From positions 1 through 64,000 of the IMG/VR virus record IMGVR_UViG_3300046787_000508: a stretch of DNA of 64,000 nt; one strand, given 5' to 3'. Made by a program: the position numbers and the translations under genes. Positions 13,734-63,900 of this stretch are shown here, in pieces; the stretch's first letter is position 1; every line of letters starts with the position of its first letter. This DNA is from a virus. The notes beneath the pieces were generated by a model. It was not told where the DNA came from. It did not search any database and was given only the letters and a program-made list of their open reading frames with translations.

Positions 13734-13741
13734 TATAAATA
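13734..13741 (-). promoter_or_regulatory. TATTTATA box, candidate late promoter
   Basis: Perfect TATTTATA on the coding strand, 22 nt upstream of the 676-residue fibre gene. The following leader is A-rich (AAACAAGTAAAAACAAAAAT), as expected for Shine-Dalgarno-independent initiation in Bacteroidota. Confidence 0.55.
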
Positions 13742-14853: not shown

Positions 14854-14854
14854 A

Positions 14855-15169
14855 TTACAAATTGAACGATTCTGTGATTATTTTTTCGTAGTATCCCTTA
14901 CCGTTTGCACCTGTGGTTCTACTAATTTCTTTTTTACCTTCGAAAAGAATTACTGTTGGTACACTTCTAATTCCCAACTCCTGAGCTAAGGTCATGTTTT
15001 GGTCAACATCCATCTTAACAATCTCGACACCGTCGAAGTCATTTGAGATTGATTCTAAAACTGGTATCAACGCTTTACATGGTCCACACCAAGTGGCGAA
15101 GAAGTCCACCATTACCTTATCACCGTTATTTAATTTTTCCGTTAATTCTTCTGTTGTTAATGTTCTCAT
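14855..15169 (-). CDS. Thioredoxin
   Basis: 104 residues, the normal length. The motif W27-C-G-P-C31 is in VDFFATWCGPCKALIPV, and the cis-proline is P71 in RSVPTVILFEGKK. All catalytic features are intact, so it should be an active dithiol reductant for ribonucleotide reductase or other cytoplasmic targets. Its start overlaps the last base of the AAA+ ATPase stop codon and the glutaredoxin follows two bases later, so the three are probably made together. A role as a polymerase processivity factor, as in T7, is possible but nothing here indicates it. Confidence 0.93.
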   Translation of the reverse strand: MRTLTTEELTEKLNNGDKVMVDFFATWCGPCKALIPVLESISNDFDGVEIVKMDVDQNMTLAQELGIRSVPTVILFEGKKEISRTTGANGKGYYEKIITESFNL

Positions 15170-16236
15170 TAAAATCCTATTTTTTTTGTTTGTTTTGTTA
15201 TTCTGACTACATCGGAGTCAATATTATATATATCGGCTAAGGTTAAACCTTTTTCGGATACAACATCTTTTTTGAGATGTTTTAATAATTTATTTGTTTC
15301 GTCAACTGATAATGCCTCAAATTTATGTTCAGCAATTAATCTACCTTTACGAAGTAATGCTTGGTCAATTCTTTCTCTTTTCATGTTGAAGGTTGCTATA
15401 ACTTGAATGTTTAAACAATCACCCAAAATACCGTCAGTTAAATTAAGAATATTTGAAACTCCTGCAGGTGAACCGTTTCCTTCTCTATCTGCAATTACTC
15501 TTTCAGCGTCTTCAATAATCAATATACTATTTTTTTTCTCCATAAGAAATGGAATAATTGAAGGTTCTGATAACATTTCTGCCATCGATGGTGGTATGAA
15601 CAAAATATCTTTGTCTTTGATATGTTTTGTAAGGTATTTCAAATATGAGGTTTTACCTGTACCTGGGTCCCCATGTAATAAGATAATACCTTTATCATTC
15701 GGGGTGTTTAATCTCTTAACAATGATGTCATGGATTTTTCCAAACTCTTCACCATAGTTTAATGATACATTAAGTTCACCACATTCCAAATCATATTCTT
15801 CGGTGTCCATATGACCCATGTCCGATTTAACAAGTTGGATGTTTGATTTTTTCTTTTCTCTTTTGAACTTAAAAATCTCCTCTAAGTTAATTTGGGTTTC
15901 CAATTCACCAAGAAGTAGATTGTAAAGAAAATCTAAGGTAATTAAATCACTTTTTTTGTTTCCACCTGATTGGTACCTGATAACGATATTCTTTTCATGG
16001 TGTATTAATAACGACTCAAATATGTTATCATCATTTCTTCTTGTAGTTTCCACCTTACAGTCCTCAATAAAACCATTTTCAATTAGAAACTGTTTTACGG
16101 ATTTGTCATAAACGTTTTTGTTGCTGAACTTTGATGGTATATTATCAAATAATATTAAGTAGTATTGGTTATCGGGAAAATCATTTCCATAAACACTATC
16201 ATACAAACTCACATCCACTGGAAATTTTCGACTCAT
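15169..16236 (-). CDS. AAA+ ATPase
   Basis: 355 residues. Residues 1-160 are an uncharacterised N-terminal domain. The ATPase core follows, with Walker A G189DPGTGKT196, Walker B ILIIED (238-243), sensor 1 in VIATFN (279-284) and a likely arginine finger in LLRKGRL (near 296-300). The core resembles the BCS1 / Rubisco-activase branch, single-domain remodelling ATPases often found in large phages. The substrate is unknown. It is the first gene of an operon with thioredoxin and glutaredoxin and has a TATTTATA box 7 nt upstream. Remodelling of a host complex or virion assembly are both possible. Confidence 0.85.
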   Translation of the reverse strand: MSRKFPVDVSLYDSVYGNDFPDNQYYLILFDNIPSKFSNKNVYDKSVKQFLIENGFIEDCKVETTRRNDDNIFESLLIHHEKNIVIRYQSGGNKKSDLITLDFLYNLLLGELETQINLEEIFKFKREKKKSNIQLVKSDMGHMDTEEYDLECGELNVSLNYGEEFGKIHDIIVKRLNTPNDKGIILLHGDPGTGKTSYLKYLTKHIKDKDILFIPPSMAEMLSEPSIIPFLMEKKNSILIIEDAERVIADREGNGSPAGVSNILNLTDGILGDCLNIQVIATFNMKRERIDQALLRKGRLIAEHKFEALSVDETNKLLKHLKKDVVSEKGLTLADIYNIDSDVVRITKQTKKIGF

Positions 16237-16243
16237 AGTAAAA

Positions 16244-16251
16244 TATAAATA
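16244..16251 (-). promoter_or_regulatory. TATTTATA box, candidate promoter
   Basis: Perfect coding-strand TATTTATA ending 7 nt before the ATG of the AAA+ ATPase gene. If it is a -10 or -7 element, the transcript would start at or just before the start codon. Confidence 0.45.
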
Positions 16252-16271: not shown

Positions 16272-16553
16272 TTAATTCAAACAAATTGTACCAAAATTTG
16301 GTATCTCCATAAAGATACCATTTTCCTTGTACTTACTTGTTTTTGGTTTTGGGGGTGTTGTTTTTATTTCTTCGAACTGTTCCTTTGATAAAGTTGCATC
16401 ACCTTTACTTTCGTAATTTTTTTCTGCAAATATTGAAAGTCTCTCAAAAAATAAATCGTAATCCATTTCCCCTAAAAAATATGAGTAAGCCTCATCATTC
16501 TTTTTAAGGTAATCTTTTACTTTATTAATGTAAATTAAAATCTCAGGATTCAT
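16272..16553 (-). CDS. Hypothetical protein (93 aa)
   Basis: 93 residues. The helical N-terminal half (VKDYLKKNDEAYSYFLGEMD) resembles small phage proteins of unknown function, with a basic linker (TTPPKPKTSKYKE) and a short hydrophobic end. Its ATG overlaps the stop of the NusG-like gene by one base, so the two are likely co-translated. It could be a partner of that transcription factor, but only position supports this. Confidence 0.65.
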   Translation of the reverse strand: MNPEILIYINKVKDYLKKNDEAYSYFLGEMDYDLFFERLSIFAEKNYESKGDATLSKEQFEEIKTTPPKPKTSKYKENGIFMEIPNFGTICLN

Positions 16554-17080
16554 TAGGGTTTTTCTATTTGGGACAAAGTTAATGAAACTATTGTATTCCT
16601 TCCAAATATTTTTACCTCAACATCGACTTTATTATCACCAATTAATTCTGAAATCACACCATTGAAGGTGTTGAATGGTCCTTCAATGATGTTTACGTTG
16701 TCACCAACTTTATATTTTAATTTCTTAGATTCAATATGGGTATCTAAAGTATCGTCTTTAAGGATACGTCTAACATCCGTCTCTTTTAAGAGTATCGGTG
16801 TTCTATCTCCTCTCATTCCCATTAGATTAGGGAACGCTGCGATTACTTTTAAATCATCGTTAGTCAATTCTCTATCTGATTCGAAATAAAGGTAACCACT
16901 ATATAAAACTTTTTCCCTTAACACCTTTTTGTTTCTAACAACAATTAGATTTTTTTCAGTTGGGCATATAAATCTTATGATATCTTTAATTCGACCCTGT
17001 TCGATGTCTTTATTAAATTGTTCACTAAGTGACCTTTCTTTTCCTGGTAATACTTTTACCACGTACCAACTTTTTTTCAT
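16553..17080 (-). CDS. NusG-like transcription elongation / antitermination factor
   Basis: 175 residues with the two-domain NusG layout. The NGN domain (about 1-105) opens with SWYVVKVLPGKERSLSEQF and contains VLYSGYLYFE, matching the P-G-Y-v-f strand that docks on RNA polymerase. The KOW domain (about 123-175) reads KYKVGDNVNIIEGPFNTFNG and ends VSLTLSQIEKP. NusG proteins bind the clamp of RNA polymerase; specialised paralogues such as RfaH or LoaP act on chosen operons. A phage copy could modify host polymerase for long late operons. It lies with the Dam methylase and upstream of the AAA+/redox genes. KOW residues look intact. Confidence 0.9.
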   Translation of the reverse strand: MKKSWYVVKVLPGKERSLSEQFNKDIEQGRIKDIIRFICPTEKNLIVVRNKKVLREKVLYSGYLYFESDRELTNDDLKVIAAFPNLMGMRGDRTPILLKETDVRRILKDDTLDTHIESKKLKYKVGDNVNIIEGPFNTFNGVISELIGDNKVDVEVKIFGRNTIVSLTLSQIEKP

Positions 17081-17103
17081 GATTTTTTTTAAATAAATAT
17101 GAA

Positions 17104-17946
17104 CTAGTAGTTCATTATTAGGAGTTCGGTTCCCAAGTTCTGTTTACCGTCTTTCCTTGCTGCTGCCGCCTTAGCGAAGTCTTTTTGTTCCCATCTATAT
17201 TCGTCTTTAGGGAACCATTCTTCCAACTTAGGGAACACATAGTAAGATAAACTAAACTTACCTTGGATACCTTTAATACATTCCGATAATCTGATGTGGT
17301 CATTAACATCGAAATCATGATTAGAATAATAATTTTCAGTTTTCCAATACGGTGGGTCCATGTAGAAATATGTTGTTGGTGAGTCATATTGTTTTACAAC
17401 GTCACAAAAATCTTTGTTTTCTACAAATGTTAACTTATCGAAATGTTCTCTAAATTTAGGATTTTTTAATTTATCCATAAAGATAAGAACTTTACAACGA
17501 TATTTTCCCTTATAGTCAGTGTATGCCGCGGTTTCAGGTTTTGACCCTGAGAATACTTGTGTTAACACATAAACGTATTTACCTGCAATGTCTAAACTAT
17601 TTTCTTCTGTAATAACCAAATCGGGATTAAAGACTTCTTTTTGATATTCTCTGAACATTACAGAATACTCTGGTGGTGTGTCTTCTACACCTAATTGTTG
17701 ACATGGGTACTTTGCCAATTCGTCCCATAAAACGTCGTATTGTTTCGCCCATTTCATTAGGTTGGCGTTAAGACGATTGTAGTCATTATAGACCACCGTT
17801 TTTAAATTAGGGAACTTTGATAAGTCCATATTAAAAAATACCCAAAACATACCTGAGAATCCCTCTACGTATGTTTCAATGTCATTTGGGATAAATGGAA
17901 CAATCCACTTACCAATTCTTGCTTTACCTCCGATGTATGATATCAT
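17104..17946 (-). CDS. DNA adenine N6-methyltransferase (Dam / D12 class)
   Basis: 280 residues. The N-terminal G6-G7-K8 (SYIGGKARIGKWIVPFIP) is the class-typical S-adenosylmethionine loop. EGFSGMFWVFF (28-38) stands for motif I, in place of the usual PFxGxG, and DPPY is at 197-200 for base flipping and catalysis. Length is normal for the D12 family. It would methylate adenine in a short site and protect phage DNA from host restriction; no partner endonuclease is visible nearby. The gene faces the plus-strand island across a 76-base divergent promoter region with a host-type TTTG-N20-TATATTTT pair on its side. Confidence 0.88.
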   Translation of the reverse strand: MISYIGGKARIGKWIVPFIPNDIETYVEGFSGMFWVFFNMDLSKFPNLKTVVYNDYNRLNANLMKWAKQYDVLWDELAKYPCQQLGVEDTPPEYSVMFREYQKEVFNPDLVITEENSLDIAGKYVYVLTQVFSGSKPETAAYTDYKGKYRCKVLIFMDKLKNPKFREHFDKLTFVENKDFCDVVKQYDSPTTYFYMDPPYWKTENYYSNHDFDVNDHIRLSECIKGIQGKFSLSYYVFPKLEEWFPKDEYRWEQKDFAKAAAARKDGKQNLGTELLIMNY

Positions 17947-17970
17947 TGTTTTAAATTGTTAGTTATAGTA

Positions 17971-18002
17971 AAAATATAAGTTAAATAATTGAAAAAAACA
18001 AA
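17971..18002 (-). promoter_or_regulatory. Bacteroidota-type promoter for the methylase gene
   Basis: On the minus strand TTTG (17999-18002) is followed after 20 bases by TATATTTT (17971-17978), fitting the published Bacteroidota layout TTTG-N19-21-TAnnTTTG with one mismatch. It ends 24 nt before the ATG. Confidence 0.45.
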
Positions 18003-18019
18003 TTAAATGTATATATTTT
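17988..18019 (+). promoter_or_regulatory. Divergent Bacteroidota-type promoter for the plus-strand island
   Basis: ATTG (17988-17991), 20 bases, then TATATTTT (18012-18019), ending 3 nt before the ATG at 18023. It overlaps the methylase promoter head-on, so only one side can be occupied at a time. The spacing to the ATG is very short, so the true promoter may differ. Confidence 0.35.
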
Positions 18020-18022
18020 ATT

Positions 18023-18172
18023 ATGGCATGTACAAAATGTAAAAAGAAACAACAGGAAGATTACGTTCGTAAAGAATTACAAAAAACCGATAAAACGGTG
18101 GTAATCTTATTAATAGGAGTTGCAATCCTTTCCTTATATGGGATTTATTCTCTGATTAGACAATTCGTATGA
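18023..18172 (+). CDS. Small single-pass membrane protein with CxxC
   Basis: A 49-codon frame (MACTKCKKKQQEDYVRKELQ, then a hydrophobic segment at about 25-46 with VVILLIGVAILSLYGIY). The N terminus has C3-x-x-C6 next to a lysine cluster, so it may bind a metal. The C-terminal half is a clear membrane helix. Its stop overlaps the ATG of the next gene (ATGA at 18169-18172), so it is a real translated unit. With the next gene it forms the only plus-strand transcript in the window. Function unknown; small phage membrane proteins of this kind often act in superinfection exclusion or host take-over. Confidence 0.75.
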   Translation: MACTKCKKKQQEDYVRKELQKTDKTVVILLIGVAILSLYGIYSLIRQFV

Positions 18173-18810
18173 TAAACTACAAATATTTCATCGTATTATT
18201 CTGTAATAAGAAGAGGAAACGTTTGATACATAAATCTGCGAAGAGGTCAACAATACAAGAGGTTTGGTATGAACTTAGGTCCGAGAGAAAACCACGATAT
18301 GTTAAAACTAATTCGGGTAAACAGAGAACACCCCAAAATTACGAATTGGCATTGATTTATCCAAATAATAGATGGGCCGTAAAAACGTACGGTAAAGATG
18401 AATTGGGTAGGAATATCGAACTTAACGTAATCAACGATGGTGAACAGAGAATAAAAGAAATTATTCCGTATTGGGAAGAGGAATTGATATATGACTTTGA
18501 TACCAAATCAAAAATTAGATATCATGAACTATTGGATATTCTATTGTCGGTTGAAGACATTTCACAAATATTCACATTAAATAATAAGATACTTCTTCAG
18601 ATTGAGGATAACTTTAGAATGTTCGGTAATAAGAATATTACGGATGCGTTGAGGTTATTTGACTTGATTAAAGAGGACCTATTAAAAAAGAAAAGAGGTA
18701 ATTTCTTTTTTGTAAAAGACATTACCACTCATCAAAGAAAGTTACTATACAATATGTTAGAAACTAAAGGTTTTAAAAGAACCGAACTGTTTAGACATTA
18801 TTCTTATTAA
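18169..18810 (+). CDS. Hypothetical protein of the plus-strand island
   Basis: 213 residues, basic, starting MINYKYFIVLFCNKKRKRLI. It has SKIRYHELLDILLSVEDISQ in the middle and a C-terminal HQRKLLYNMLETKGFKRTEL motif. No catalytic signature is apparent. It is translationally coupled to the 49-residue membrane protein and ends 20 bases inside the convergent minus-strand gene at 18791-19024, with no terminator between them. Read-through of either transcript would make antisense RNA to the other. I do not recognise the family; host-interaction factors are commonly arranged like this. Confidence 0.8.
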   Translation: MINYKYFIVLFCNKKRKRLIHKSAKRSTIQEVWYELRSERKPRYVKTNSGKQRTPQNYELALIYPNNRWAVKTYGKDELGRNIELNVINDGEQRIKEIIPYWEEELIYDFDTKSKIRYHELLDILLSVEDISQIFTLNNKILLQIEDNFRMFGNKNITDALRLFDLIKEDLLKKKRGNFFFVKDITTHQRKLLYNMLETKGFKRTELFRHYSY

Positions 18811-19024
18811 AAACAAAATCAATTTCTCCAATTCTTAGGGAGAATTTAGAGTTCACGTCTTTACTTGCAATATTCACCTTACTGGTTATCAATTTATAAA
18901 TTTTTTCAAATTCAACTTTGTTTAATTCAATCACCACGGTGCTACCCATCGAGGTTAAATTAATCTTTTCCAATAAATCTGAAATCAAAGCTAATTGATT
19001 TAATATTTCACCTTTTTTTTCCAT
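18791..19024 (-). CDS. Hypothetical protein (77 aa)
   Basis: 77 residues, mixed alpha/beta (LALISDLLEKINL, then TVVIELNKVEFEKIYKLI). It overlaps the 3' end of the plus-strand gene by 20 bases and the upstream minus-strand gene by 25 bases. It has no signal peptide and no recognisable motif. The amphipathic pattern suggests a small cytosolic or virion protein. Kept as real because the frame is intact and follows the dense packing of the operon. Confidence 0.6.
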   Translation of the reverse strand: MEKKGEILNQLALISDLLEKINLTSMGSTVVIELNKVEFEKIYKLITSKVNIASKDVNSKFSLRIGEIDFVFNKNNV

Positions 19025-19212
19025 CCTAATGTAATTAGTATTTTATTTATTGTTGATAGTTTTTCTTTTGGTTTAGACTCGAACATTTTCTCTTTGTCAA
19101 TTGATTTAATTTCCTCAATCAATTTCACTTTGCTCGTCAATATCTCCTTCTTGTCCTTCTCCATCTCCTTCGTCAGCCAATCTAACCCCTGTTGTATCTT
19201 CGAATTGCTCAT
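19000..19212 (-). CDS. Small basic helical protein overlapping its upstream neighbour
   Basis: 70 residues starting MSNSKIQQGLDWLTKEMEKD and ending ILITLGWKKKVKY. It is predicted helical and is rich in lysine and glutamate. Its first 33 codons lie inside the 3' end of the 19115-19570 gene in another frame, a 98-base overlap. The upstream gene in that overlap encodes an acidic tail (ADEGDGEGQEGDIDEQSEID) of low complexity, so the shared stretch is constrained mainly by this frame. I recall similar helix-lysine proteins in other large phages but cannot name a family. Confidence 0.65.
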   Translation of the reverse strand: MSNSKIQQGLDWLTKEMEKDKKEILTSKVKLIEEIKSIDKEKMFESKPKEKLSTINKILITLGWKKKVKY

Positions 19213-19570
19213 CTTGTATAAATGATATGTCTTTTAATTTATCTAAAGATTCTTTTTGGAATAACTGTTGTAATTCCTTTACCTTCTCTTGGAAAAGTTT
19301 CTCTTTATCTTCTTCGTCTTTGTTGATTTTTATAATTTCCACAGCACATGCGGTAACCACTTTATAACCTTCCTCAGTTGCGTTCGATATGATTGATAAT
19401 AAACTAAATTTCTCGTTCTTATCTTGTACTTTAGTTTTAATTGAACGGTAAGGTTTAACAATATTTTCGTATTTCCAATTCAATGGTAACTTAATATCTA
19501 AACTGACGTTACCTTCAATTTCTCTTAATGAAAAGAAATAAGGTCTTAATGATTTTATAATTTCGTACAC
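19115..19570 (-). CDS. Conserved hypothetical phage protein with acidic tail
   Basis: 151 residues. The N-terminal part (MYEIIKSLRPYFFSLREIEG, then VSLDIKLPLNWKYENIV) is beta-rich. Residues 40-75 contain SIISNATEEGYKVVTACAVE and about 80-115 form a charged helix. The last 30 residues are almost all acidic or small and are encoded by the stretch that overlaps the next gene. No enzymatic motif. It sits with other small conserved genes between the virion and methylase blocks. The overlap makes this pair a useful test of dual coding. Confidence 0.7.
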   Translation of the reverse strand: MYEIIKSLRPYFFSLREIEGNVSLDIKLPLNWKYENIVKPYRSIKTKVQDKNEKFSLLSIISNATEEGYKVVTACAVEIIKINKDEEDKEKLFQEKVKELQQLFQKESLDKLKDISFIQDEQFEDTTGVRLADEGDGEGQEGDIDEQSEID

Positions 19571-19582
19571 GTTGTGTTTTTA

Positions 19583-19771
19583 TTAAAATATGTTTATAAT
19601 CAAATAGGTTATTATATAGGACGTTGCCAAATATAAGAATGTTTGATTTTGTTTATCCACCTGCATAGGTGTCGGATTGTCTTCTCTAAGTTTTGATATG
19701 AATTCCACAACGAAACGTATGGAGAAGATTACACTTAGAATGAAAATGTATAACTCAATTTTTTGTATCAT
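19583..19771 (-). CDS. Small two-pass membrane protein
   Basis: 62 residues with two hydrophobic helices: about 4-24 (KIELYIFILSVIFSIRFVV) and about 45-61 (LYLATSYIITYLIINIF). The polar loop between them is conserved-looking (KLREDNPTPMQVDKQNQ). The start overlaps the histone-like gene by 17 bases. The size and topology would fit a holin or antiholin, but also many other phage membrane proteins, and there is no lysin next to it. Function unassigned. Confidence 0.7.
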   Translation of the reverse strand: MIQKIELYIFILSVIFSIRFVVEFISKLREDNPTPMQVDKQNQTFLYLATSYIITYLIINIF

Positions 19772-19943
19772 GTTTTTTAATTTCTTCTAAAATATCCCTT
19801 CTATACGTACCAATCAATTGTTTGATTTCTTGTGCGTATTTTCTGGCTCTTATTGATGCACTTCGATTACCTTTTTCATAAACTTTATGGGTATCTACTG
19901 ACATTTTTTCAACCAGGTCTTTAATTTTTTTTAATGTTTCCAT
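19755..19943 (-). CDS. Histone H1-like DNA-binding protein (Hc1 family)
   Basis: 62 residues. The arrangement METLKKIKDLVEKMSVD, then VYEKGNRSASIRARKYAQEI and YRRDILEEIKK matches the small Hc1-type histone H1-like proteins of Bacteroidota and Chlamydiota, in which a K-G-N-x-x-A-x-x-R-x-R-K segment joins two helices. Such proteins bind DNA without strong sequence preference and compact the nucleoid. In a phage it could package its own genome, silence host DNA or coat replicating DNA. The lysine-rich C-terminal tail of chlamydial Hc1 is missing, as in most Bacteroidota members. Probably acquired from a host. Confidence 0.8.
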   Translation of the reverse strand: METLKKIKDLVEKMSVDTHKVYEKGNRSASIRARKYAQEIKQLIGTYRRDILEEIKKHDTKN

Positions 19944-19984
19944 AATTTTATTCCTGTTTTTAATACCAATATACGAGATTTTTT

Positions 19985-20440
19985 TTACTTTTTCAAGTTT
20001 TGTTCGAATAATTTATAAAGGTCAGTCAACATATCTAACTCAGCACGGGACTTTGTGTAGTTATAATCGAACAATTTATAAAAGTATTCACGTATTAGGT
20101 TCATATTATCTTCTGTTTCAGATAGATAAAACGCCTCATGGAAAAACAACCATAAGTACTCATAGTGATTTCCTTGATTTTTAATGTGGATTTTTTCTTT
20201 TTTGAAGTTTGATGTTACCTTTTCGAAACACCATGTGAAGTGATTTTGGATGTCCTCAGTATCTTTAAGTACGTCAGGACCTAAATAAGTTTCCTCTATT
20301 ATGTTTAGTAGTGAAACCAAAAAGTCATAATATAACTCGGTTTTTTCCCGAGTTATATTATAAGCTTTGTACCATATTTCTGCTTGATTTTTGTAACTTT
20401 CTGAAGTTAAAAATTCAATATATCCCTTTCTGTTTTCCAT
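19985..20440 (-). CDS. Hypothetical all-helical protein (151 aa)
   Basis: 151 residues, helical and rich in aromatic residues (SYKNQAEIWYKAYNITREKT, EYLWLFFHEAFYLSETEDN). No signal peptide, cysteine pair or catalytic motif. It ends in a lysine tail (FEQNLKK). It stands alone between two short A-rich gaps, the upstream one containing only A/T runs. I recognise it only as a type of protein that recurs in large Bacteroidota phages; function unknown. Confidence 0.65.
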   Translation of the reverse strand: MENRKGYIEFLTSESYKNQAEIWYKAYNITREKTELYYDFLVSLLNIIEETYLGPDVLKDTEDIQNHFTWCFEKVTSNFKKEKIHIKNQGNHYEYLWLFFHEAFYLSETEDNMNLIREYFYKLFDYNYTKSRAELDMLTDLYKLFEQNLKK

Positions 20441-20490
20441 ATCTCTAATATTTTAGTAATATACAGATAAAAAGAAATAAAAAAAAGGTT

Positions 20491-21954
20491 TTATTGAGTT
20501 TTCTCGTTGTATGATAACATATCTTTCATTCTTTTCATTTCAGCAAGAATTTCAGATTTTGTTTTTTCTTCACCTTCACTGATAGTTTTAGCTTCAGTTG
20601 ATTTTACATTTTGTACAGGTGCCGGGTCCTTTACATACATTGGAGCCTTTTCATCTTTCTTATGTTTTCTTTCTATTTGTTTAACCATTTCTTTACCTAA
20701 ATCACTTGGGGTAACATTGGCAACATCGTCACCGTCTTGTTTGTTACCTGTAGTTGAATCTCCTGATAAAGATTTCTTTAATCTTTCAACAAATTCTGTA
20801 GATGGTTTTTCATCATATTCTAAATGTTGCATTCCACCACCTCTATTATCTTCAACAAATTCGTTTTCTTCTTCAGTGTTTTTTGATGCCACTTTTTCAC
20901 CTTTTCCGATTTGTTTTGGAAATTCGGGATTATCGTTACCATCAAAAGATAAATAATCTTTTAATTTCTTATCAACTGAACTTAAATATTCTTTTGTTCC
21001 TTTATCTTGACTGTGTGCCGTCTTAACCGCATCTAAACCTGGAATACTTTCCATTACAATTTTAGAAATCATATCAACAAGTTTACTTTCAGTTAATTTA
21101 AATGACTTAGGTTGTTTTGATTCGTTCATACCATTGTAACCACATTCCATACATTCACCTTCACTCATTAAACCTGAACCACATTCTTCACAAACTTCAT
21201 CGTGACCACCTTCATGATTACCTTCAGCCATATCGGTTTCTTCGGTCCCTTGTCCAACTAATGATTGGAAGTGAGATTCTGCGTCTGCAATTGCTGACAT
21301 ATCGAAATCTTCATTAACGGGTCCTTGACACTCGTTACATTCTTCCTTTTCTTCAATGGATTCTTCGTCACCCATCATTTCTTCCTCTTCTAATTGTTTC
21401 CAACACTCTTCAACGTTATGAGTTTCCCCATCAACTGTGAATGTATCTTCACCAGCTTCTCTTGCTTTACTTAATGCGGCAACGAATGCGTTACCTTCCA
21501 TTGGTTCGTTTGTATTTTCTGACATTTCTGTTCCTAATTTTTCTGTATCTTCAGATACTATGTTTATTTTTAAATCCATTACTCCTTCGTTACCAGATAT
21601 GTCAACATCAATGTCGAAATTCTGACCAAGACCCTTTTCCTCTAAATCCAAGTGTAAACCTTGCATTAATTTTTTCTGTGACTCTTCTAAGTTAGACCCA
21701 CCACAAGCACTTAACAATTCTTCTTCTGAAATGTCGTTTATTTCAATTGAAACACCGAATTCGTGTGTCTCATCGCTGATGTCTTGGATATTTGATATTT
21801 TATCAACTAAGTTGGAAAGTGTTTGAAACCCTTTAACGGTATCAAGTATAAGTTTTTTACCTTCATCTTCCATTCCTTGGTCCTCACTTATCAACATTTT
21901 GGTTTGTTCCTCCAAAATTTGATTTATCATATTACCTAATTCTTTTATTTTCAT
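20491..21954 (-). CDS. Large acidic protein with zinc-ribbon-like cysteine pairs
   Basis: 487 residues from the preferred ATG at 21954 (MKIKELGNMINQILEEQTKM). That start lies just past the upstream stop; a start nine codons earlier would overlap it by 26 bases. The protein is strongly acidic. A module with NAFVAALSKAREAGEDTFTV and DGETHNVEECW lies near 153-185. Three CxxC pairs (ECNECQ, CEECGSG, ECMECGY) at about 205-275 look like a zinc ribbon. A later segment, KLTESKLVDMISKIVMES, resembles a motif seen in structural or scaffold genes of marine T4-like phages. The C-terminal third is low-complexity and charged. An internal capsid or scaffold role is a guess. Confidence 0.7.
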   Translation of the reverse strand: MKIKELGNMINQILEEQTKMLISEDQGMEDEGKKLILDTVKGFQTLSNLVDKISNIQDISDETHEFGVSIEINDISEEELLSACGGSNLEESQKKLMQGLHLDLEEKGLGQNFDIDVDISGNEGVMDLKINIVSEDTEKLGTEMSENTNEPMEGNAFVAALSKAREAGEDTFTVDGETHNVEECWKQLEEEEMMGDEESIEEKEECNECQGPVNEDFDMSAIADAESHFQSLVGQGTEETDMAEGNHEGGHDEVCEECGSGLMSEGECMECGYNGMNESKQPKSFKLTESKLVDMISKIVMESIPGLDAVKTAHSQDKGTKEYLSSVDKKLKDYLSFDGNDNPEFPKQIGKGEKVASKNTEEENEFVEDNRGGGMQHLEYDEKPSTEFVERLKKSLSGDSTTGNKQDGDDVANVTPSDLGKEMVKQIERKHKKDEKAPMYVKDPAPVQNVKSTEAKTISEGEEKTKSEILAEMKRMKDMLSYNEKTQ

Positions 21955-21955
21955 A

Positions 21956-22789
21956 TCAAATAAATATCTTCTTAATTTCATTTAATACAATATTTTCCAC
22001 TTCTTTGTATGGTAATCCCATTTCTTTTGAAGTTTCAAGTATTGAATCCTTAATATCAACCATCTCCAATAACTCAATGGCGTTGATGTCACCTTGATTA
22101 CAGTATGGAAATTTTTTACATTTTTCCTTAATCTTAACAAATACTGAATTCGGTCCTCCCCATTTTGGGAATTTCTTATCTTTCACTGCTCTACTGTTAC
22201 CGATACTCTTTGGACCATCGATTTTCAAAGGGTCTTTACGTCCTTTAGGTGACGTACCAAATAAAGGAACATCGTATGCCCCTGATGATGATGAGTCAGT
22301 TGCTTCTGTAAACTCTTCCTCCTCATTTAAATCCATATTCGGTATGTTAGTGATATCTTTTTTAACCATATCCATCGCCGGTGCAAATGAACCTGACGCA
22401 TCTGAAGTAGTTTGTTCGTTTGTCTCCTCTTCACTTTCATTTGAAAGGTCCACAACGTATAATTTTGGATTGATTCCTTTACCGATTAAACCTGATAATC
22501 TTGTGTTACCACCTAAAAGGTCGTAATCGTTGTCACTAAATTTAACAACTATCGGCATTTCAATAGAACCTTCCTCAAAATGTTTTTCGAATCTCTTCTT
22601 TTTGTCGAAATCCAACGTATCGTAGTCTAAATCTACGTTACCTAAAACATTTTTTATTTTTTCGTAATTTGTAATGGTATAGTTCTCCGACGCAAGTTTC
22701 ATCCAACCTTCTTTACCCATTTTTTCAAATTCACGGTAACGTAAGGCTTCCATCCATTCTTTATCTAAATCTGGTTTTGTATACTTCAT
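21956..22789 (-). CDS. ParB-like fold phage protein
   Basis: 277 residues from ATG 22789, whose codon overlaps the upstream stop (TAATG at 22787-22791); an ATG 16 codons earlier is possible but would overlap the upstream gene by 49 bases. It starts MKYTKPDLDKEWMEALRYRE. At about 90-120, MPIVVKFSDNDYDLLGGNTR followed by LSGLIGKGINPKLYVVDL has the look of a ParB / sulfiredoxin-like domain, with GGNTR at the place of the GxHR-type phosphate-binding loop. The middle is acidic linker. The C-terminal KIKEKCKKFPYCNQGDINAI and helical tail are typical of a conserved environmental phage family. Nuclease or CTPase activity is not established. Confidence 0.6.
   Translation of the reverse strand: MKYTKPDLDKEWMEALRYREFEKMGKEGWMKLASENYTITNYEKIKNVLGNVDLDYDTLDFDKKKRFEKHFEEGSIEMPIVVKFSDNDYDLLGGNTRLSGLIGKGINPKLYVVDLSNESEEETNEQTTSDASGSFAPAMDMVKKDITNIPNMDLNEEEEFTEATDSSSSGAYDVPLFGTSPKGRKDPLKIDGPKSIGNSRAVKDKKFPKWGGPNSVFVKIKEKCKKFPYCNQGDINAIELLEMVDIKDSILETSKEMGLPYKEVENIVLNEIKKIFI
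21959..21966 (-). promoter_or_regulatory. TATTTATA-type box (TATTTATT variant)
   Basis: Coding-strand TATTTATT ends 4 nt before the preferred start at 21954 and overlaps the last codons of the ParB-like gene. It is weaker evidence than the intergenic copies because the bases are also coding. Confidence 0.3.
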
Positions 22790-23028
22790 TATCTTACTGA
22801 TTTTAAAGATGTTTCCCAAAATGATTTCCTCTGCCATAAAGTCTTGAACAACTCAACAACAACTTTGGTTGAGAGGTCAACGATTTTATCGTCAATCTTT
22901 TTTGTTCCCAATTCCTTTTGAATAACCTTAATAACAACATTGTGTGCATTGGTTGAATCCAAAAAGTCTTTCATCTCTTTTCTGACGATTTTTTCTATCT
23001 CTTGTTTATCTGAGTTTGAAATTGCCAT
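22789..23028 (-). CDS. Small conserved phage protein (79 aa)
   Basis: 79 residues, helical: MAISNSDKQEIEKIVRKEMK, then KVIQKELGTKKIDDKIVDLS and LFKTLWQRKSFW near the end. I recognise this pattern (DKxEIExIVRKEMKDFL ... LFKxLWxRxxFW) as a small conserved protein of T4-like environmental phages, with no known function. It is coupled to the ParB-like gene through TAATG. Confidence 0.75.
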   Translation of the reverse strand: MAISNSDKQEIEKIVRKEMKDFLDSTNAHNVVIKVIQKELGTKKIDDKIVDLSTKVVVELFKTLWQRKSFWETSLKSVR

Positions 23029-23030
23029 GA

Positions 23031-23567
23031 TTAGTTATCTTTTCTGTTTACAATTAAGTCATTTATTGAACCTGAGAATTTTACCTCAAAGTTTTTCAAT
23101 TTCCCAAGTGTTTCCATCGTTTCATCGTCAATCTTTAACATAGACGCATTTGATAGATAAACTCCATTGTCATCACCGGTTGAAAGGGTGAATTCAATGT
23201 TGTTTTGTGTTATCTTACCGTCTAACTTAACACTATTTGGGTATATTTGTAATTTACCAAAATCTACTAACTCAGATACTTCGTTCTTGAAATCATCGAT
23301 TAATTTAGAGATTAACGCCTTTTCATTGTCATTAACTTTTAAATCGACACTATCCTCAGAATGGATTTCAACGTCAACGTTGTTTATTACTGTCATATCT
23401 TCTCTCTCAGACCCGTTTGTTGGTTCTGTGGGTGGTTGACTCATTTCTTGACCAGGTACCTCAGATTGTTCTCTAAGGTTACTCTTCGATGATGCATTAA
23501 AGTTTCTGATGGTATTCAACATACCTCTAATGTCGTCGGCTGCGTTTTTGTTATTTTCTATCTTCAT
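23031..23567 (-). CDS. Hypothetical protein (178 aa)
   Basis: 178 residues. A helical N terminus (ADDIRGMLNTIRNFNA) and a Pro/Glu-rich linker (EVPGQEMSQPPTEPTNG) lead to a beta-rich domain of about 100 residues (VDVEIHSEDSVDLKVND, KLDGKITQNNIEFTLSTGDD). The N-terminal helix resembles those of small phage proteins that attach to larger assemblies. The gene overlaps the amidase-like gene by 17 bases. No family recognised; a virion accessory role fits the neighbourhood. Confidence 0.65.
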   Translation of the reverse strand: MKIENNKNAADDIRGMLNTIRNFNASSKSNLREQSEVPGQEMSQPPTEPTNGSEREDMTVINNVDVEIHSEDSVDLKVNDNEKALISKLIDDFKNEVSELVDFGKLQIYPNSVKLDGKITQNNIEFTLSTGDDNGVYLSNASMLKIDDETMETLGKLKNFEVKFSGSINDLIVNRKDN

Positions 23568-24183
23568 AAAATGTTGTAAAATCGAATGATGGGTTTATAT
23601 CTGTATAAATATTTAGAAAGTTCGATTTACATACAATTCCGTTGAATTTATCTACATTTTCGAGATATCCTTGTGAGGGTACGGTCTGATATGGGATATT
23701 ATGTTCCTCAGTAAGTGATTTACAGAGGGTTACGAGGGATTTTGTCTGTTCCTCAGTATATTGGTCCCAATAGAAATAACCCCTCCAATTTTTAATATAC
23801 GGTTGGGTTCTATAAACATCACCTATCCAATTGTTATAAATCCCTGTAATGGTATTTTTATTTAACCATCCAAGATTCTCAATTGCAATTTTGATTTGTT
23901 TTCTGTCGATTTCGGGATTACCGAACGTTTTGGAACTGTAGTTGGTATTAAAGACTTTATATACCTTACCTAACTTAGAAACCACATAATGTGGTAATTC
24001 TTCATACTTCCCGTCTAATCTGTACTTTAACTTCATCATGAAGTCATCACATCTTCTTCCGGTATCGTATAGTAATATTTGAGTTTTCTTACTTTTTTTC
24101 TTAGTTACGTTTAATTCTTTCTGATTAAGAATTTCTACGTCGTGAATTTCTAACATTACGTGAGAATGTTTTTTTACTGACAA
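23551..24183 (-). CDS. Amidase_2/PGRP-like protein with degenerate zinc site
   Basis: 210 residues. The fold signature of N-acetylmuramoyl-L-alanine amidases is visible: a strand ending in ILLYDTGRR (36-44), PHYVVSKLGKVYKVFN (64-79), IKIAIENLGWL (97-107) and GIVCKSNFLNIYTDINPSF (182-200). In active members the first of these is an HHT/HCT-type motif and the last reads about vcHSxY...TDxNPaF. Here the first zinc histidine is replaced (Y39-D40) and the last is a lysine (K186). Metal binding and hydrolysis are therefore unlikely unless the site is rearranged. It could bind peptidoglycan or act as a tail component. It overlaps both neighbours. Confidence 0.65.
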   Translation of the reverse strand: MSVKKHSHVMLEIHDVEILNQKELNVTKKKSKKTQILLYDTGRRCDDFMMKLKYRLDGKYEELPHYVVSKLGKVYKVFNTNYSSKTFGNPEIDRKQIKIAIENLGWLNKNTITGIYNNWIGDVYRTQPYIKNWRGYFYWDQYTEEQTKSLVTLCKSLTEEHNIPYQTVPSQGYLENVDKFNGIVCKSNFLNIYTDINPSFDFTTFYEDRK

Positions 24184-24358
24184 AGTTTAAACTTTGCTCC
24201 TCGATGATGTCATCCTCTTCATTTTCGGGAATTATCACTCGATTATTATCCAAATCGTAAAACACTTGGTTCGGATTTACATCATCAGATTCTAAATATA
24301 AATCATCCTCATCGGGTGAAATTATCGGGGTAAACGTCGAAGAAGAAGTGATTTCCAA
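24125..24358 (-). CDS. Small acidic hypothetical protein (77 aa)
   Basis: 77 residues: a very acidic middle (ISPDEDDLYLESDDVNPNQ, IPENEEDDIIEEQSLN) and a basic end (RNVRNSRRRNS). It overlaps the amidase-like gene by 59 bases. No membrane segment. The charge split is typical of nucleic-acid mimics or scaffolding pieces, but no family is recognised. Confidence 0.55.
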   Translation of the reverse strand: MEITSSSTFTPIISPDEDDLYLESDDVNPNQVFYDLDNNRVIIPENEEDDIIEEQSLNFVSKKTFSRNVRNSRRRNS

Positions 24359-24375
24359 TTCTTCTTCTGTGTTTT

Positions 24376-25722
24376 CTAAGAGTTTTTTTTTATGCTCTCA
24401 TCTTCAGACGGAGCCTCTTCTATTTTTGTTTCAACCACTTCCGGTTGTACGGGTTCTTGTATAACCATCTCAGATAAAGGTTCTTCGATATTATCTAAAA
24501 TGTCGTTAGCCTCATCCAATTCTTTTTGTTCAGATTGATAAACAGGTTCATCGTTAACCATTTCCAAGTCGTATTGTGGTACCTCAGTTTGTTCAGCATC
24601 AATTTCGTTGTTTACCTCATCTAACACCTCATTTATAATTTTAACGTCAATACCAAATTCCTCCACTTCTTCAGGTGTTGCAAATGGTTCAGGAACAAAC
24701 CCGTCAAAATCATCATTTTCCAATTTTCTCTCGTACTCATCTTGATTCATTTCCATAATCTCCTCATCAGATAATGATGGTGTTGGTTCTTGTTGGAAAA
24801 TATTTGTCACATTTGGGTCTATAATGGAAAAATTTTGTCTTTCTTCTTCGATTGTTGGTTCTTCTTGGAAAATTTCCTCCTCTTCAACGATTTGATTGTT
24901 TTCTATGATTTCTTCGTTAGGGATTTCAACCACTTCATTAACCGTCTCAATCACTTCAGGTTCGGTTTGTGGTTCAATAACATCTTCCTTAATTAATGGG
25001 TTATCAAACGGTTCGTCATATAGTCCAAGTTCTTCGTCATTTTTCATCATTTCTGATAATAACTCATTTCTTTTTTTATACTCATTTGCTGCTTTAATAA
25101 GTGCTTCGTTTGGTTTAGATGGATTCTCTAAGTGTTTGGTTAATATTTCTAAGTCTTCGTCAGATAAACGTAATCTTGAAACTTCTCCGATTATTTCTTT
25201 TGCGTCAACCTCATTGATTAATTTTTCATCAATGGTAGATTCAACACCTTTCATTCTATCTTCTTCGGTGAACTTAACTAACATGTGTAGGAAAGACAAA
25301 GAAATGATTGGTAACATTCCACCCGCAAATAATGCTAAGAATCTTTTGTGTCCAACAAAATCATTATTATCAACCCCAATAAATTCAACTAACGGTGAAA
25401 CTAAATCAACCCAATCTTTAAATTGTTTTGAATTAATATCAATAAATGAGTAGGCAAAGAAAATGTTACCGATGAATTGAATCAGGGTAACGATTGCAAA
25501 TGGGAAATAAACTTTACTACCCATGTTTGCCGATATCGCAGCCAACGCAGATAACGCAGCAATTTCAATACCAATAGAAAGATAAACGGACCAACTAACG
25601 GGATTAGAAATACCGTACCATTGGGTTACGTGTGAAATTGACACCACCGCCACAGTCAAGATTGGAATCAAGAACGCGGCGATGATTAATGTTTTATAAT
25701 TCTTATTGAACCAATTTTTCAT
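24376..25722 (-). CDS. Four-pass membrane protein with long acidic tail
   Basis: 448 residues. Four hydrophobic segments at about 10-30 (TLIIAAFLIPILTVAVVSI), 44-65, 72-95 (FPFAIVTLIQFIGNIFFAYS) and 129-152 (LALFAGGMLPIISLSFLHML). Residues 160-448 are cytosolic-looking, acidic and of low complexity, with repeated Glu-rich stretches (EEEIFQEEPTIEEE). It follows the 89-residue membrane protein by 3 bases. The membrane part could reorganise the host envelope and the tail could recruit proteins. No transporter or protease motif is seen. Confidence 0.7.
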   Translation of the reverse strand: MKNWFNKNYKTLIIAAFLIPILTVAVVSISHVTQWYGISNPVSWSVYLSIGIEIAALSALAAISANMGSKVYFPFAIVTLIQFIGNIFFAYSFIDINSKQFKDWVDLVSPLVEFIGVDNNDFVGHKRFLALFAGGMLPIISLSFLHMLVKFTEEDRMKGVESTIDEKLINEVDAKEIIGEVSRLRLSDEDLEILTKHLENPSKPNEALIKAANEYKKRNELLSEMMKNDEELGLYDEPFDNPLIKEDVIEPQTEPEVIETVNEVVEIPNEEIIENNQIVEEEEIFQEEPTIEEERQNFSIIDPNVTNIFQQEPTPSLSDEEIMEMNQDEYERKLENDDFDGFVPEPFATPEEVEEFGIDVKIINEVLDEVNNEIDAEQTEVPQYDLEMVNDEPVYQSEQKELDEANDILDNIEEPLSEMVIQEPVQPEVVETKIEEAPSEDESIKKNS

Positions 25723-25725
25723 ATG

Positions 25726-25995
25726 TTATTTTAATTTAGCTTCTTCAGCTTTGATTTCTTCGTCAACTTTAATACCTCGTTCAACGTCGATTAATTTTCT
25801 ATCTGTTGATTGAATCATTCTTTTTTCAGATTTCAACCCTTCAATTTTCATTTTAACCTCTAATCTTTTTTCTAAATCAGTCATTTCTTTCCTAACTTTA
25901 GAAATTTCTCTTGTGTCACCACACCCTTTGAAGAATGTTAACACCGCAATTGCTAATACGATTACTGTAAAATTTTCTTGTACAAATTTTTTCAT
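25726..25995 (-). CDS. Membrane-anchored coiled-coil protein (89 aa)
   Basis: 89 residues. An N-terminal helix at about 10-23 (FTVIVLAIAVLTFF) is followed by KGCGD, which could serve as a weak lipobox, and then by a charged coiled coil (ISKVRKEMTDLEKRLEVKMK). The topology is that of an inner-membrane spanin or of a small lipoprotein. A TATTTATA box lies 12 nt upstream, inside the 3' end of the sigma gene, so it may be expressed independently of sigma. Confidence 0.65.
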   Translation of the reverse strand: MKKFVQENFTVIVLAIAVLTFFKGCGDTREISKVRKEMTDLEKRLEVKMKIEGLKSEKRMIQSTDRKLIDVERGIKVDEEIKAEEAKLK

Positions 25996-26006
25996 AACTT
26001 TTGTTT

Positions 26007-26816
26007 TTATAAATAGTTTATTAACGAATAACTCTCGTTTCTTAATTTTTTTATAGCTTTATCCTTAAGTTGTCGGATTCTTTCCTTGGTACATTCGAAT
26101 TCTTCACCTAAATCTTCGAGGTTACTCTCAACCCCATTTAGTCCGAAATACTTCTCAATGATAACCTTTTCTCTATCATCTAACACACTCAAGATATAAG
26201 ATACCCTTTTTTTAATTTCTTCTGTAGTGTTAAGTATATTTTCAGGGTTATTTTCGTTAGGGTCTCTAATGATATCTATTAATTGGTCGCCCTCATCGTT
26301 GATTTCTTTATAGAGACCAACGCAATATGGTAAGTTAGTAACGGGTTCGTCACTGTAATTGATATGGTATTTTTCAGATTCAGGTAATTCATTTTTCCTG
26401 TTCTTTTGTGCCTCTTGAACTAAATTAGATGGTATACGTATAGTTCTTGAATAGTCATTTAATGATGACATAATTGATTGTTTTACCCACCAAACAGCGT
26501 ATGATATAAATTTTAAACCTGATGCCGGGTCAAATCTGTCGATTGCCTTTAATAAACCAATATTACCTTCTGAGATAATATCTAAAAGGTCTAACCCCTG
26601 ATTTTGGTACATCTTAGCCACAGAAACCACAAAACGTAGGTTACCTGTAACTAATTCACTTTTCATACTATCTTTTACCGATTTAGGGGTCTCGGGGTCT
26701 AATAACGCCTTAAAAATTTCATCTTGTCGTTGATGCGTTACTACCGGAATTTTCTTCAATTCTTTTAAATAGTAATGAAGTTCGTCTGTGTTGACGATAA
26801 TGTGAGACTTAGCCAT
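26007..26816 (-). CDS. Sigma-70 family RNA polymerase sigma factor
   Basis: 269 residues, with regions 1.2 to 4 all present. Region 1.2 is DELHYYLKELKKIPVVTHQR (11-30). Region 2 contains NLRFVVSVAKMYQNQGLDLL and DIISEGNIGLLKAIDRFD (59-96), then SYAVWWVKQSIMSSL (105-119). The region 3 start is SRTIRIPSNLVQEAQ. Region 4 is DDREKVIIEKYFGLNG and CTKERIRQLKDKAIKKLRN (213-260), with the helix-turn-helix intact. This is a complete primary-like (group 2/3) sigma. T4 instead uses gp55, a reduced sigma. The protein should redirect host core polymerase to phage promoters, possibly the TATTTATA class. It lies downstream of the ClpP/envelope block. Confidence 0.93.
   Translation of the reverse strand: MAKSHIIVNTDELHYYLKELKKIPVVTHQRQDEIFKALLDPETPKSVKDSMKSELVTGNLRFVVSVAKMYQNQGLDLLDIISEGNIGLLKAIDRFDPASGLKFISYAVWWVKQSIMSSLNDYSRTIRIPSNLVQEAQKNRKNELPESEKYHINYSDEPVTNLPYCVGLYKEINDEGDQLIDIIRDPNENNPENILNTTEEIKKRVSYILSVLDDREKVIIEKYFGLNGVESNLEDLGEEFECTKERIRQLKDKAIKKLRNESYSLINYL
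26008..26015 (-). promoter_or_regulatory. TATTTATA box overlapping the sigma gene stop
   Basis: Perfect coding-strand TATTTATA, 12 nt upstream of the 89-residue membrane protein. It overlaps the last codons of the sigma-factor gene, whose stop is at 26007-26009. Confidence 0.4.
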
Positions 26817-26853
26817 GTTATGTGTTATTTATTATAAAGGTAACTAAAAAAAA

Positions 26854-27300
26854 TTAGATATCAAAATTATCTAAGAAGTTTTTTTCTTCAGGTGTTAAAC
26901 TATCAACACCATCTTTGTCAATCTTTTCTAAAAGACTGTCTAATAGTAATTCAGGATTCTTATTCATGGTTATAGCTGTGAATTCGATTTTCATCATGTT
27001 ATCTTCACCAGGGTTATAAATGAAATCCTTCATTGTTTTTGGAACGTGTGCAGTGACAATTGATTCTCTTTCAAAAAGAAAATAGAATTTAACATGGTCA
27101 GGGGGTAAACTTTCATACAGTTCCGTAGATACATCATCTTTTTCTTTGTCAGAATCAAAAATGATGATGATATTGTTCATATTCTCAATAATGTATTTTA
27201 CCGACGTAAATGAATTTGACGGGAATACGTCAGTACAGAAATATTCAACCTCATCAGGACCTTCGAATGAACCAAATATAAATAAAATATACGTATTCAT
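26854..27300 (-). CDS. Hypothetical protein (148 aa)
   Basis: 148 residues, alpha/beta: MNTYILFIFGSFEGPDEVEY, a strand NNIIIIFDSDKEKDDV, and a C-terminal helical part (NPELLLDSLLEKIDKDGVDS, then LTPEEKNFLDNF). The last part resembles the short EEKxFLDxF motif of some phage proteins. No catalytic motif recognised. It lies between the sigma gene and the envelope cassette, with short gaps on both sides. Confidence 0.65.
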   Translation of the reverse strand: MNTYILFIFGSFEGPDEVEYFCTDVFPSNSFTSVKYIIENMNNIIIIFDSDKEKDDVSTELYESLPPDHVKFYFLFERESIVTAHVPKTMKDFIYNPGEDNMMKIEFTAITMNKNPELLLDSLLEKIDKDGVDSLTPEEKNFLDNFDI

Positions 27301-27955: not shown

Positions 27956-28375
27956 TTACTTTACTAATAAAAGAGACGTTGAGATTATTGCAACGAATGA
28001 CCCTATTTTATAAAAGAACGTTTTCATTTTCTGTGCCTTTAGTTCTTTTAGTAAACTTTCGGATTTCTGTCTTTCTAAATCAAATTGTTGGTCCTTCTTT
28101 GTTATGATTAACTCCAAGTTACCAATTTTTTGTGTTTTAAGGGTATCCTTCTCTTTGTATAAAGTAATTTGTTGGTCTTTCAAACCGATAACTTTATTTA
28201 ACTCCACAATTTCTAATTTTGCACCGTCGTAACGGATTAAATCTTGGAAAGCTAATCTCGCTATTCTTGTTGGAAGAATAACTTTAGTGGTGTCTTGTTT
28301 AGTTATTGTATCTGTTTGCGAATAACTGTTCAAGCTCAACATTACCAACAGTGGTAATAGTATTAACTTTTTCAT
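27956..28375 (-). CDS. Exported coiled-coil protein with C-terminal membrane segment
   Basis: 139 residues. A clear signal peptide (MKKLILLPLLVMLSLNSYSQ), with no lipobox cysteine, is followed by a long coiled coil (ELNKVIGLKDQQITLYKEKD ... ERQKSESLLKELKAQ) and a C-terminal hydrophobic segment (about 122-138, GSFVAIISTSLLLVK). Its first 26 codons lie within the 3' end of the preceding coiled-coil gene in another frame, as o-spanin genes do inside i-spanin genes. But a C-terminal anchor is not typical of o-spanins. Candidate spanin-like envelope protein. Confidence 0.65.
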   Translation of the reverse strand: MKKLILLPLLVMLSLNSYSQTDTITKQDTTKVILPTRIARLAFQDLIRYDGAKLEIVELNKVIGLKDQQITLYKEKDTLKTQKIGNLELIITKKDQQFDLERQKSESLLKELKAQKMKTFFYKIGSFVAIISTSLLLVK

Positions 28376-28650: not shown

Positions 28651-28658
28651 TATAAATA
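28651..28658 (-). promoter_or_regulatory. TATTTATA box, candidate late promoter
   Basis: Perfect coding-strand TATTTATA (in TCATATTTATAATAAAAAC), 13 nt upstream of the i-spanin-like gene in a 48-base gap behind clpP. Late expression would suit a lysis cassette. Confidence 0.5.
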
Positions 28659-36574: not shown

Positions 36575-36582
36575 TATAAATA
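36575..36582 (-). promoter_or_regulatory. TATTTATA box, candidate late promoter
   Basis: Perfect TATTTATA (in ATTATTTATATATTG) on the coding strand, 9 nt upstream of the RuvC-like gene in a 39-base gap. Late expression would suit a resolvase that trims DNA for packaging. Confidence 0.5.
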
Positions 36583-39576: not shown

Positions 39577-39584
39577 TATAAATA
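39577..39584 (-). promoter_or_regulatory. TATTTATA box 4 nt before a start codon
   Basis: Perfect coding-strand TATTTATA followed by AAAC and the ATG. If this is a -10 or -7 element, the transcript would be leaderless or nearly so. Confidence 0.45.
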
Positions 39585-41669: not shown

Positions 41670-41677
41670 TATAAATA
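41670..41677 (-). promoter_or_regulatory. TATTTATA box directly behind a terminator
   Basis: Perfect TATTTATA, adjoining the T-rich tail of the 41681-41703 terminator, 39 nt upstream of the 457-residue adhesin. A second box at 41636 follows. Confidence 0.45.
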
Positions 41678-42234: not shown

Positions 42235-42242
42235 TATAAATA
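42235..42242 (-). promoter_or_regulatory. TATTTATA box, candidate late promoter
   Basis: Perfect coding-strand TATTTATA followed by ATAAACAAATTTAAAACAAA, 25 nt before the ATG of the 160-residue virion protein. The A-rich leader lacks a Shine-Dalgarno sequence. Confidence 0.55.
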
Positions 42243-43960: not shown

Positions 43961-43968
43961 TATAAATA
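43961..43968 (-). promoter_or_regulatory. TATTTATA box, candidate late promoter
   Basis: Perfect coding-strand TATTTATA (in GTCTATTTATAACATAC), 6 nt before the ATG of the 559-residue adhesin gene. Confidence 0.5.
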
Positions 43969-55407: not shown

Positions 55408-55415
55408 TATAAATA
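55408..55415 (-). promoter_or_regulatory. TATTTATA box, candidate late promoter
   Basis: Perfect TATTTATA (in ATCATATTTATAAATAAA) on the coding strand, 11 nt before the ATG of the 303-residue structural protein. It would drive the giant baseplate gene as well. Confidence 0.55.
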
Positions 55416-63892: not shown

Positions 63893-63900
63893 TATAAATA
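63893..63900 (-). promoter_or_regulatory. TATTTATA box 4 nt before a start codon
   Basis: Perfect coding-strand TATTTATA followed by TAAG and the ATG of the 1423-residue gene, as before the fibronectin-III gene. Confidence 0.5.

What the first reader, a model, noticed from the sequence alone, without database searches (positions are those of the whole stretch)
16553..26816. Phage carries both a full sigma-70 factor and a NusG paralogue
The sigma (26007-26816) has regions 1.2 to 4 intact, unlike the reduced gp55 sigma of T4. The NusG-like protein (16553-17080) has NGN and KOW domains. Together with the TATTTATA boxes they suggest a self-made initiation and elongation programme on host core polymerase, with the NusG paralogue possibly favouring the very long tail operons.
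Basis: partly seen in the sequence, partly recalled or inferred. Interest (0 to 1): 0.7.

Follow-up and report, generated by a model that had tools for sequence, protein, structure and literature searches.

The report
T4-type phage with two sigma factors
This virus of (probably) Bacteroidota bacteria carries two of its own promoter-reading proteins and a copy of the elongation factor NusG; sequence evidence suggests that the T4-type one, not the full-looking one first noticed, reads the repeated TATTTATA start signals of its late genes.

Summary
Both genes exist at the stated coordinates (minus strand). The sigma (26007-26816) is a conserved phage branch of Bacteroidota RpoD. It has regions 1.2, 2, the finger and 4, but region 3.1 is deleted, so '1.2 to 4 intact' is wrong. 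The NusG (16553-17080) groups with housekeeping NusG, away from RfaH/UpxY-type paralogues.

TATTTATA is strongly enriched just upstream of genes in this phage and three relatives, has no -35 partner, and matches T4's TATAAATA at 6 of 8 positions. Flavobacterium phage immuto has the box and a gp55-like sigma but neither the RpoD-like sigma nor NusG. The gp55-like protein is therefore the better candidate reader of the box.

The RpoD-like gene is never preceded by the box (0 of 29 relatives) but by host-type -33/-7 motifs, so it probably acts early or middle. NusG often has a late-type box. Relatives without NusG have equally long box-headed tail runs.

New variant of a known kind; promoter specificities are inferred, not measured.

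The parts
26007..26816 (-). RpoD-like phage sigma factor (P0001, 269 aa): regions 1.2, 2, finger and 4; region 3.1 absent
26835..26864 (-). candidate host-type promoter of the sigma gene: TTG-N19-TACCTTTA, 18 nt before the ATG
   Evidence: similar TAnnTTT motifs precede most of 29 distinct relatives, none has TATTTATA
16553..17080 (-). NusG-like protein (P0002, 175 aa): NGN plus KOW
17092..17099 (-). box variant TATTTATT, 11 nt before the nusG ATG
   Evidence: exact TATTTATA at this place in 6 of 24 distinct relatives, TATTTAT in further ones
13734..13741 (-). TATTTATA box before gene 11681-13711
16244..16251 (-). TATTTATA box before gene 15169-16236 (AAA ATPase)
26008..26015 (-). TATTTATA box before gene 25726-25995, overlapping the 3' end of the sigma gene
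28651..28658 (-). TATTTATA box before gene 28299-28637
36575..36582 (-). TATTTATA box before gene 35963-36565 (RuvC-like resolvase)
39577..39584 (-). TATTTATA box before gene 38808-39572
41670..41677 (-). TATTTATA box before gene 40257-41630
42235..42242 (-). TATTTATA box before gene 41727-42209
43961..43968 (-). TATTTATA box before gene 42275-43954
55408..55415 (-). TATTTATA box heading an 11.4-kb run of five genes (longest 1956 aa)
63893..63900 (-). TATTTATA box before gene 59617-63888 (1423 aa)

Best explanation
A T4-type myovirus, probably of a Bacteroidota host, transcribes its genome with the host core polymerase through two phage-made sigma factors. Early genes, including the RpoD-like sigma gene itself, start from host-type -33/-7 promoters (TTG-N18-20-TATnTTTR). 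The RpoD-like sigma (P0001), derived from Bacteroidota RpoD and lacking region 3.1, then competes with or replaces the host vegetative sigma at early or middle promoters. Late genes start from TATTTATA boxes without a -35 element, read by a separate gp55-like sigma (P0003, record position 121148-121846 +). The box often lies so close to the ATG that the mRNA would be leaderless or nearly so. NusG, a phage copy of housekeeping NusG with late-type boxes in many relatives, binds elongating polymerase and supports late elongation or stands in for host NusG; it is an optional add-on. Shown by sequence: the genes, their families, their co-occurrence, and the enrichment of both promoter motifs. Inferred: which sigma reads which promoter, the timing, leaderless mRNAs, the action of NusG, and the host.
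For: gp55-like sigma in the same record: region-2 match, late-sigma PHROG E 2e-4, PDB gp55 E 0.01, profile against T4/cyanophage gp55 prob 92%, E 6e-7, named fold matches mostly sigma factors. Box top upstream 8-mer, enriched in four related phages with no -35 signal in 126 boxes, as in T4 late promoters (PMC2988020, PMC1524935). Immuto has box and gp55-like gene, no RpoD-like sigma, no NusG. Box before prohead protease, portal and gp25 genes. Sigma gene without box in 29 of 29, with host-type -7 motifs instead; gp55-like gene without box in 15 of 15. Host-type -33/-7 class enriched in all five phages. Sigma and NusG trees.
Against: No promoter, transcript or protein was measured. Immuto is the only complete genome that uncouples box and RpoD-like sigma. 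The P0001 target class is not distinguished from that of the host sigma: immuto has the -33/-7 class without P0001, so P0001 may read something not found here. G000 has only 7 such promoters. No gp45 clamp was found with Pfam PF02916, and gp33 was not tested, so the T4 clamp coupling is unproven. Some boxed genes are not known late genes. Start codons are computed ATGs, so short box-ATG distances may partly be start-calling errors.
Confidence: 0.6

Rival explanations
1. One reading: the RpoD-like sigma itself reads TATTTATA and drives the late genes; the gp55-like protein is a helper or a relic.
For: The sigma is strongly conserved (mean column identity 76%) and is found in 20 of 23 records searched, as the box is enriched in those tested. 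It keeps the region 2.4 motif FISYAVWW and the region 4.2 helix.
Against: Immuto has the box but no such sigma. No -35 partner at the box. The sigma keeps Bacteroidota RpoD-like reading helices, whose known target is TAnnTTTG with a -33 element (PMC7366714). The gp55-like family is also strongly conserved and the box resembles the T4 gp55 target.
Confidence: 0.15
2. Both sigmas work together at late promoters, or at overlapping sets, for example P0001 through its region 4 on the beta flap (like gp33) and P0003 through its region 2 at the box.
For: The two genes occur together in 12 of 23 records and in G000. T4 late sigma is split into a sigma-2-like gp55 and a sigma-4-like gp33 (PMC2988020).
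Against: P0001 has its own complete region 2, which would compete for the same polymerase site. Immuto manages with the gp55-like protein alone.
Confidence: 0.1
3. The box is a translation signal in the mRNA leader, not a promoter.
For: It lies very close to start codons, often at 3-7 nt; Bacteroidota make little use of Shine-Dalgarno pairing (general knowledge).
Against: Spacing to the ATG varies from 3 to about 40 nt with a sharp floor at 3 (only two of 132 at 2 nt, none closer), which fits a start site a few nt downstream rather than a ribosome contact at fixed distance. The T4 late box is a close match in register, and the downstream A-richness is as in T4.
Confidence: 0.06

Closest known systems
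Phage T4 late transcription (gp55, gp33, gp45; TATAAATA late promoters)
   Same: T4-type virion genes; gp55-related small sigma; 8-bp AT-rich box without -35 element upstream of virion genes, A-rich downstream.
   Different: Box is TATTTATA (6 of 8 in register); sigma has about 90 further C-terminal residues predicted helical; no gp45 match in Pfam; an additional RpoD-like sigma and NusG; very short box-to-ATG distances.
Flavobacterium phage immuto (NC_055915, Immutovirus)
   Same: gp55-like gene (30% identity), TATTTATA before virion genes, host-type -33/-7 promoters before other genes.
   Different: No RpoD-like sigma and no NusG found in its complete genome.
Bacteroidota primary sigma factor (RpoD, sigma ABfr type)
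   Same: Closest cellular relatives (36-42% identity), same region 2.3-2.4 core FISYAVWW.
   Different: Phage clade on a long stem; region 3.0 changed, region 3.1 deleted.
Housekeeping NusG of Bacteroidota
   Same: Full-length NGN plus KOW, phage clade placed on this side of the tree.
   Different: FPGY motif is YSGY in all phage copies; below the NCBIfam NusG cut-off.
NusG of cyanophages S-CRM01 and S-CREM2 and of huge uncultured phages
   Same: Other phages carrying NusG, so phage NusG is not new in itself.
   Different: Separate branches in the tree; the NusG here is its own clade with 100/100 support.

Membership tests
sigma-70 family, RpoD-like (P0001) | region 2 (core binding, -10 reading) | tested here: met
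   Pfam r2 E 1.3e-16; FISYAVWW(V/I)(K/R)QS shared with Bacteroidota RpoD
sigma-70 family, RpoD-like (P0001) | region 4 with -35 helix | tested here: met
   Pfam r4 E 3e-11; TKERIRQ against TRERVRQ
sigma-70 family, RpoD-like (P0001) | region 3.1 as in primary sigma factors | tested here: not met
   no Pfam r3 hit; stretch absent in the alignment. It is filed as RpoD-derived, not as a primary sigma factor
NusG (P0002) | NGN and KOW domains over the full length | tested here: met
   KOW alone is weak in Pfam (E 0.046)
NusG (P0002) | NCBIfam TIGR00922 equivalog cut-off (135.7 bits) | tested here: not met
   110.9 bits; NusG-derived phage homologue rather than certified NusG equivalog
NusG (P0002) | binding to polymerase, S10 and Rho | not testable with these tools
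   F159, G160 and R161 of the KOW domain are invariant in phage copies; no binding measured
RfaH / LoaP / UpxY specialised paralogues (P0002) | grouping with the paralogues in a tree and in family scores | tested here: not met
   LoaP 52, UpxY 52, RfaH 29 bits against NusG 111; branch 96/94 separates it from RfaH and Bacteroidota paralogues; LoaP itself was not in the tree
T4 gp55 late sigma (P0003) | homologous sigma-2-type domain | tested here: met
   profile-profile prob 92%, E 6e-7 over 118 columns
T4 gp55 late sigma (P0003) | similarity to sigma confined to domain 2, no domain 4 | tested here: inconclusive
   about 90 extra residues; full-length sigma fold matches, but region-4 sequence comparison E 0.11-0.4
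T4 gp55 late sigma (P0003) | coupling to sliding clamp gp45 and co-activator gp33 | tested here: inconclusive
   no PF02916 match in the record, which may be divergence; gp33 not tested
T4-type late promoter | consensus TATAAATA | tested here: not met
   TATTTATA is enriched instead; TATAAATA is upstream of only 10 genes against 36
T4-type late promoter | 8-bp AT box without -35 conservation, before virion genes | tested here: met
T4-type late promoter | transcription start about one helical turn downstream | not testable with these tools
   needs 5'-end mapping

The most novel reading that the evidence does not exclude
The gp55-like protein carries its own sigma-4-like domain: a one-piece late sigma of the kind that a T4 review (PMC2988020) noted had not been found. 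Together with the RpoD-derived sigma it would form a two-step, all-phage sigma cascade giving largely leaderless late mRNAs on Bacteroidota polymerase.
Probability: 0.25. Interest if true: 0.75.

Novelty: new variant of a known kind. Interest (0 to 1): 0.55.

Why it matters
It points to a T4-type late promoter system in phages of probable Bacteroidota hosts, with a changed box and a gp55-like sigma that is annotated 'hypothetical' in the isolate immuto, and shows that a group of aquatic phages adds an RpoD-derived sigma and often a NusG. Immuto and its Flavobacterium host give a cultured system in which the box reader can be tested directly.

Tried and rejected
A first guess for the major capsid gene (L005:8081-9247) found nothing; the gp23-like gene is 130314-132047. 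A weak signal 12-14 bp upstream of the box in G000 faded with 126 boxes from four phages. Sequence comparison of the P0003 C-terminus with sigma region 4 gave E 0.11-0.4; a first run used a wrong option and was discarded. gp33: the T4 stretch fetched for it did not contain the gene. Paper searches for phage NusG, or for sigma plus NusG in jumbo phages, found nothing in the held library. Many hits for sigma and NusG in the 'phages' collection look like bacterial contigs and were not used. NusG-for-long-tail-operons was tested and not supported. A translational role of the box was considered and judged unlikely because its spacing is variable.

Full report
What is there. The window is bases 1-64000 of a 202,894-bp virus record. 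The record encodes T4-type virion and replication proteins: gp23, gp20 portal, gp25, sheath, prohead protease, PhoH, DnaB-like helicase and others.

The sigma. P0001 hits Pfam sigma regions 2 and 4 but not 3. It matches RpoD- and RpoS-type chains in the PDB over nearly its full length. Forty-five IMG/VR loci encode relatives at 47-80% identity. Its nearest cellular relatives are mostly Bacteroidota RpoDs at 36-42%. In a tree, 24 phage sequences form one clade (100/100) on a long stem next to RpoDs of Bacteroidota and allied phyla. The alignment shows regions 1.2, 2.1-2.4, finger and 4, but region 3.1 is missing.

The NusG. P0002 aligns with NusG over its whole length. Nineteen phage sequences form one clade (100/100) on the housekeeping side, separated from RfaH and Bacteroidota paralogues (96/94). 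The AF2 model (pLDDT 82.5) has an NGN and an all-beta C-terminal domain, and its best PDB matches are NusG. NusG seems optional: no match was found in five large contigs that carry the sigma (G014-G017, G022), although such records may be incomplete.

A second sigma. A search for sigma region 2 in the whole record found a weak extra match at 121283-121468 +. The 232-aa ORF around it (121148-121846) matches the late-sigma PHROG (E 2e-4) and T4 gp55 in the PDB (E 0.01). Its family profile, including immuto and Mel-JY01, matches a T4/cyanophage gp55 profile at E 6e-7. The fold matches of its model (pLDDT 79) are mostly sigma factors, though nearly all at E above 0.001. In 22 large contigs plus immuto, the gp55-like gene is in 15, the RpoD-like gene in 20 and NusG in 15; both sigmas occur together in 12 of them and in G000.

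The box. TATTTATA is not clearly over-represented overall in the window but is the top 8-mer in the 60 bp upstream of genes (36 against 4.25 expected). In G000, G001, G017 and G022 it is enriched at z 7-21 against shuffles; in G017 another 8-mer, the host-type TATCTTTG, ranks higher. Over 126 boxes no -35 signal is seen and the stretch just downstream is A-rich. T4 late promoters likewise lack -35 conservation and are AT-rich downstream (PMC2988020). T4's consensus is TATAAATA at -13 to -6 (PMC1524935); six of eight positions are shared. Box-to-ATG distances start sharply at 3 nt, which fits starts a few nt downstream and hence leaderless or near-leaderless mRNAs (inference).

Which sigma reads it. 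Immuto is the key comparison: a complete genome with a gp55-like gene, no RpoD-like sigma and no NusG, and TATTTATA upstream of tail spike, terminase, portal and other genes (13 against 1.9 expected in the 80 kb read). The RpoD-like gene itself is never behind the box (0 of 29 distinct relatives) but mostly behind TAnnTTT-type -7 motifs, the kind described for Bacteroidota sigma ABfr (PMC7366714). That promoter class, TTG-N18-20-TATnTTTR, is enriched in all five phages. NusG has TATTTATA in 6 of 24 distinct relatives and the shorter TATTTAT in further ones. The simplest model is host-type promoters early, gp55-like sigma late, RpoD-like sigma early or middle, NusG late. One complete genome carries the uncoupling argument, so this remains an inference.

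NusG and long operons. Box-headed runs are as long in G017 and G022, where no NusG was found, as in G000 and G001. This simple run measure gives no support to a special role for tail operons.

Verdict. A new variant of a known kind: T4-type late transcription in phages of probable Bacteroidota hosts, with a changed box and an added RpoD-derived sigma and often a NusG. The host is inferred from the sigma and NusG trees only. Promoter assignments need biochemistry.

Noticed in passing
L006:12712-19974 and L007:70-232 (record 156.7-164.2 kb): Array of 25 tRNA genes, one with a CTA (amber-reading) anticodon that ARAGORN labels Pyl, while 15 of 159 genes of 100 aa or more end in TAG.
   Followed up: partly
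L004:17148-17846 (P0003), C-terminal 90 residues: Possible sigma-4-like helix-turn-helix (LREMTSLSTKEIRVSIKKFKKMY) fused to the gp55-like domain; sequence comparison not significant.
   Followed up: partly
window 24376-25722: 448-aa gene downstream of the sigma gene with a stretch like the TacA1 antitoxin family (Pfam PF08681, E 3.1e-7).
   Followed up: no
window 14572-15169: Two small thioredoxin-domain genes side by side near the NusG gene.
   Followed up: no
L136 (immuto 63-94 kb): Many genes share an upstream motif TTTAGGTATCAATAATT, a repeated host-type -7 promoter block.
   Followed up: partly
L165-L180 (G017, 310 kb): TATCTTTG is the top upstream 8-mer (15 against 0.86 expected), a very clean host-type -7 class.
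   Followed up: partly
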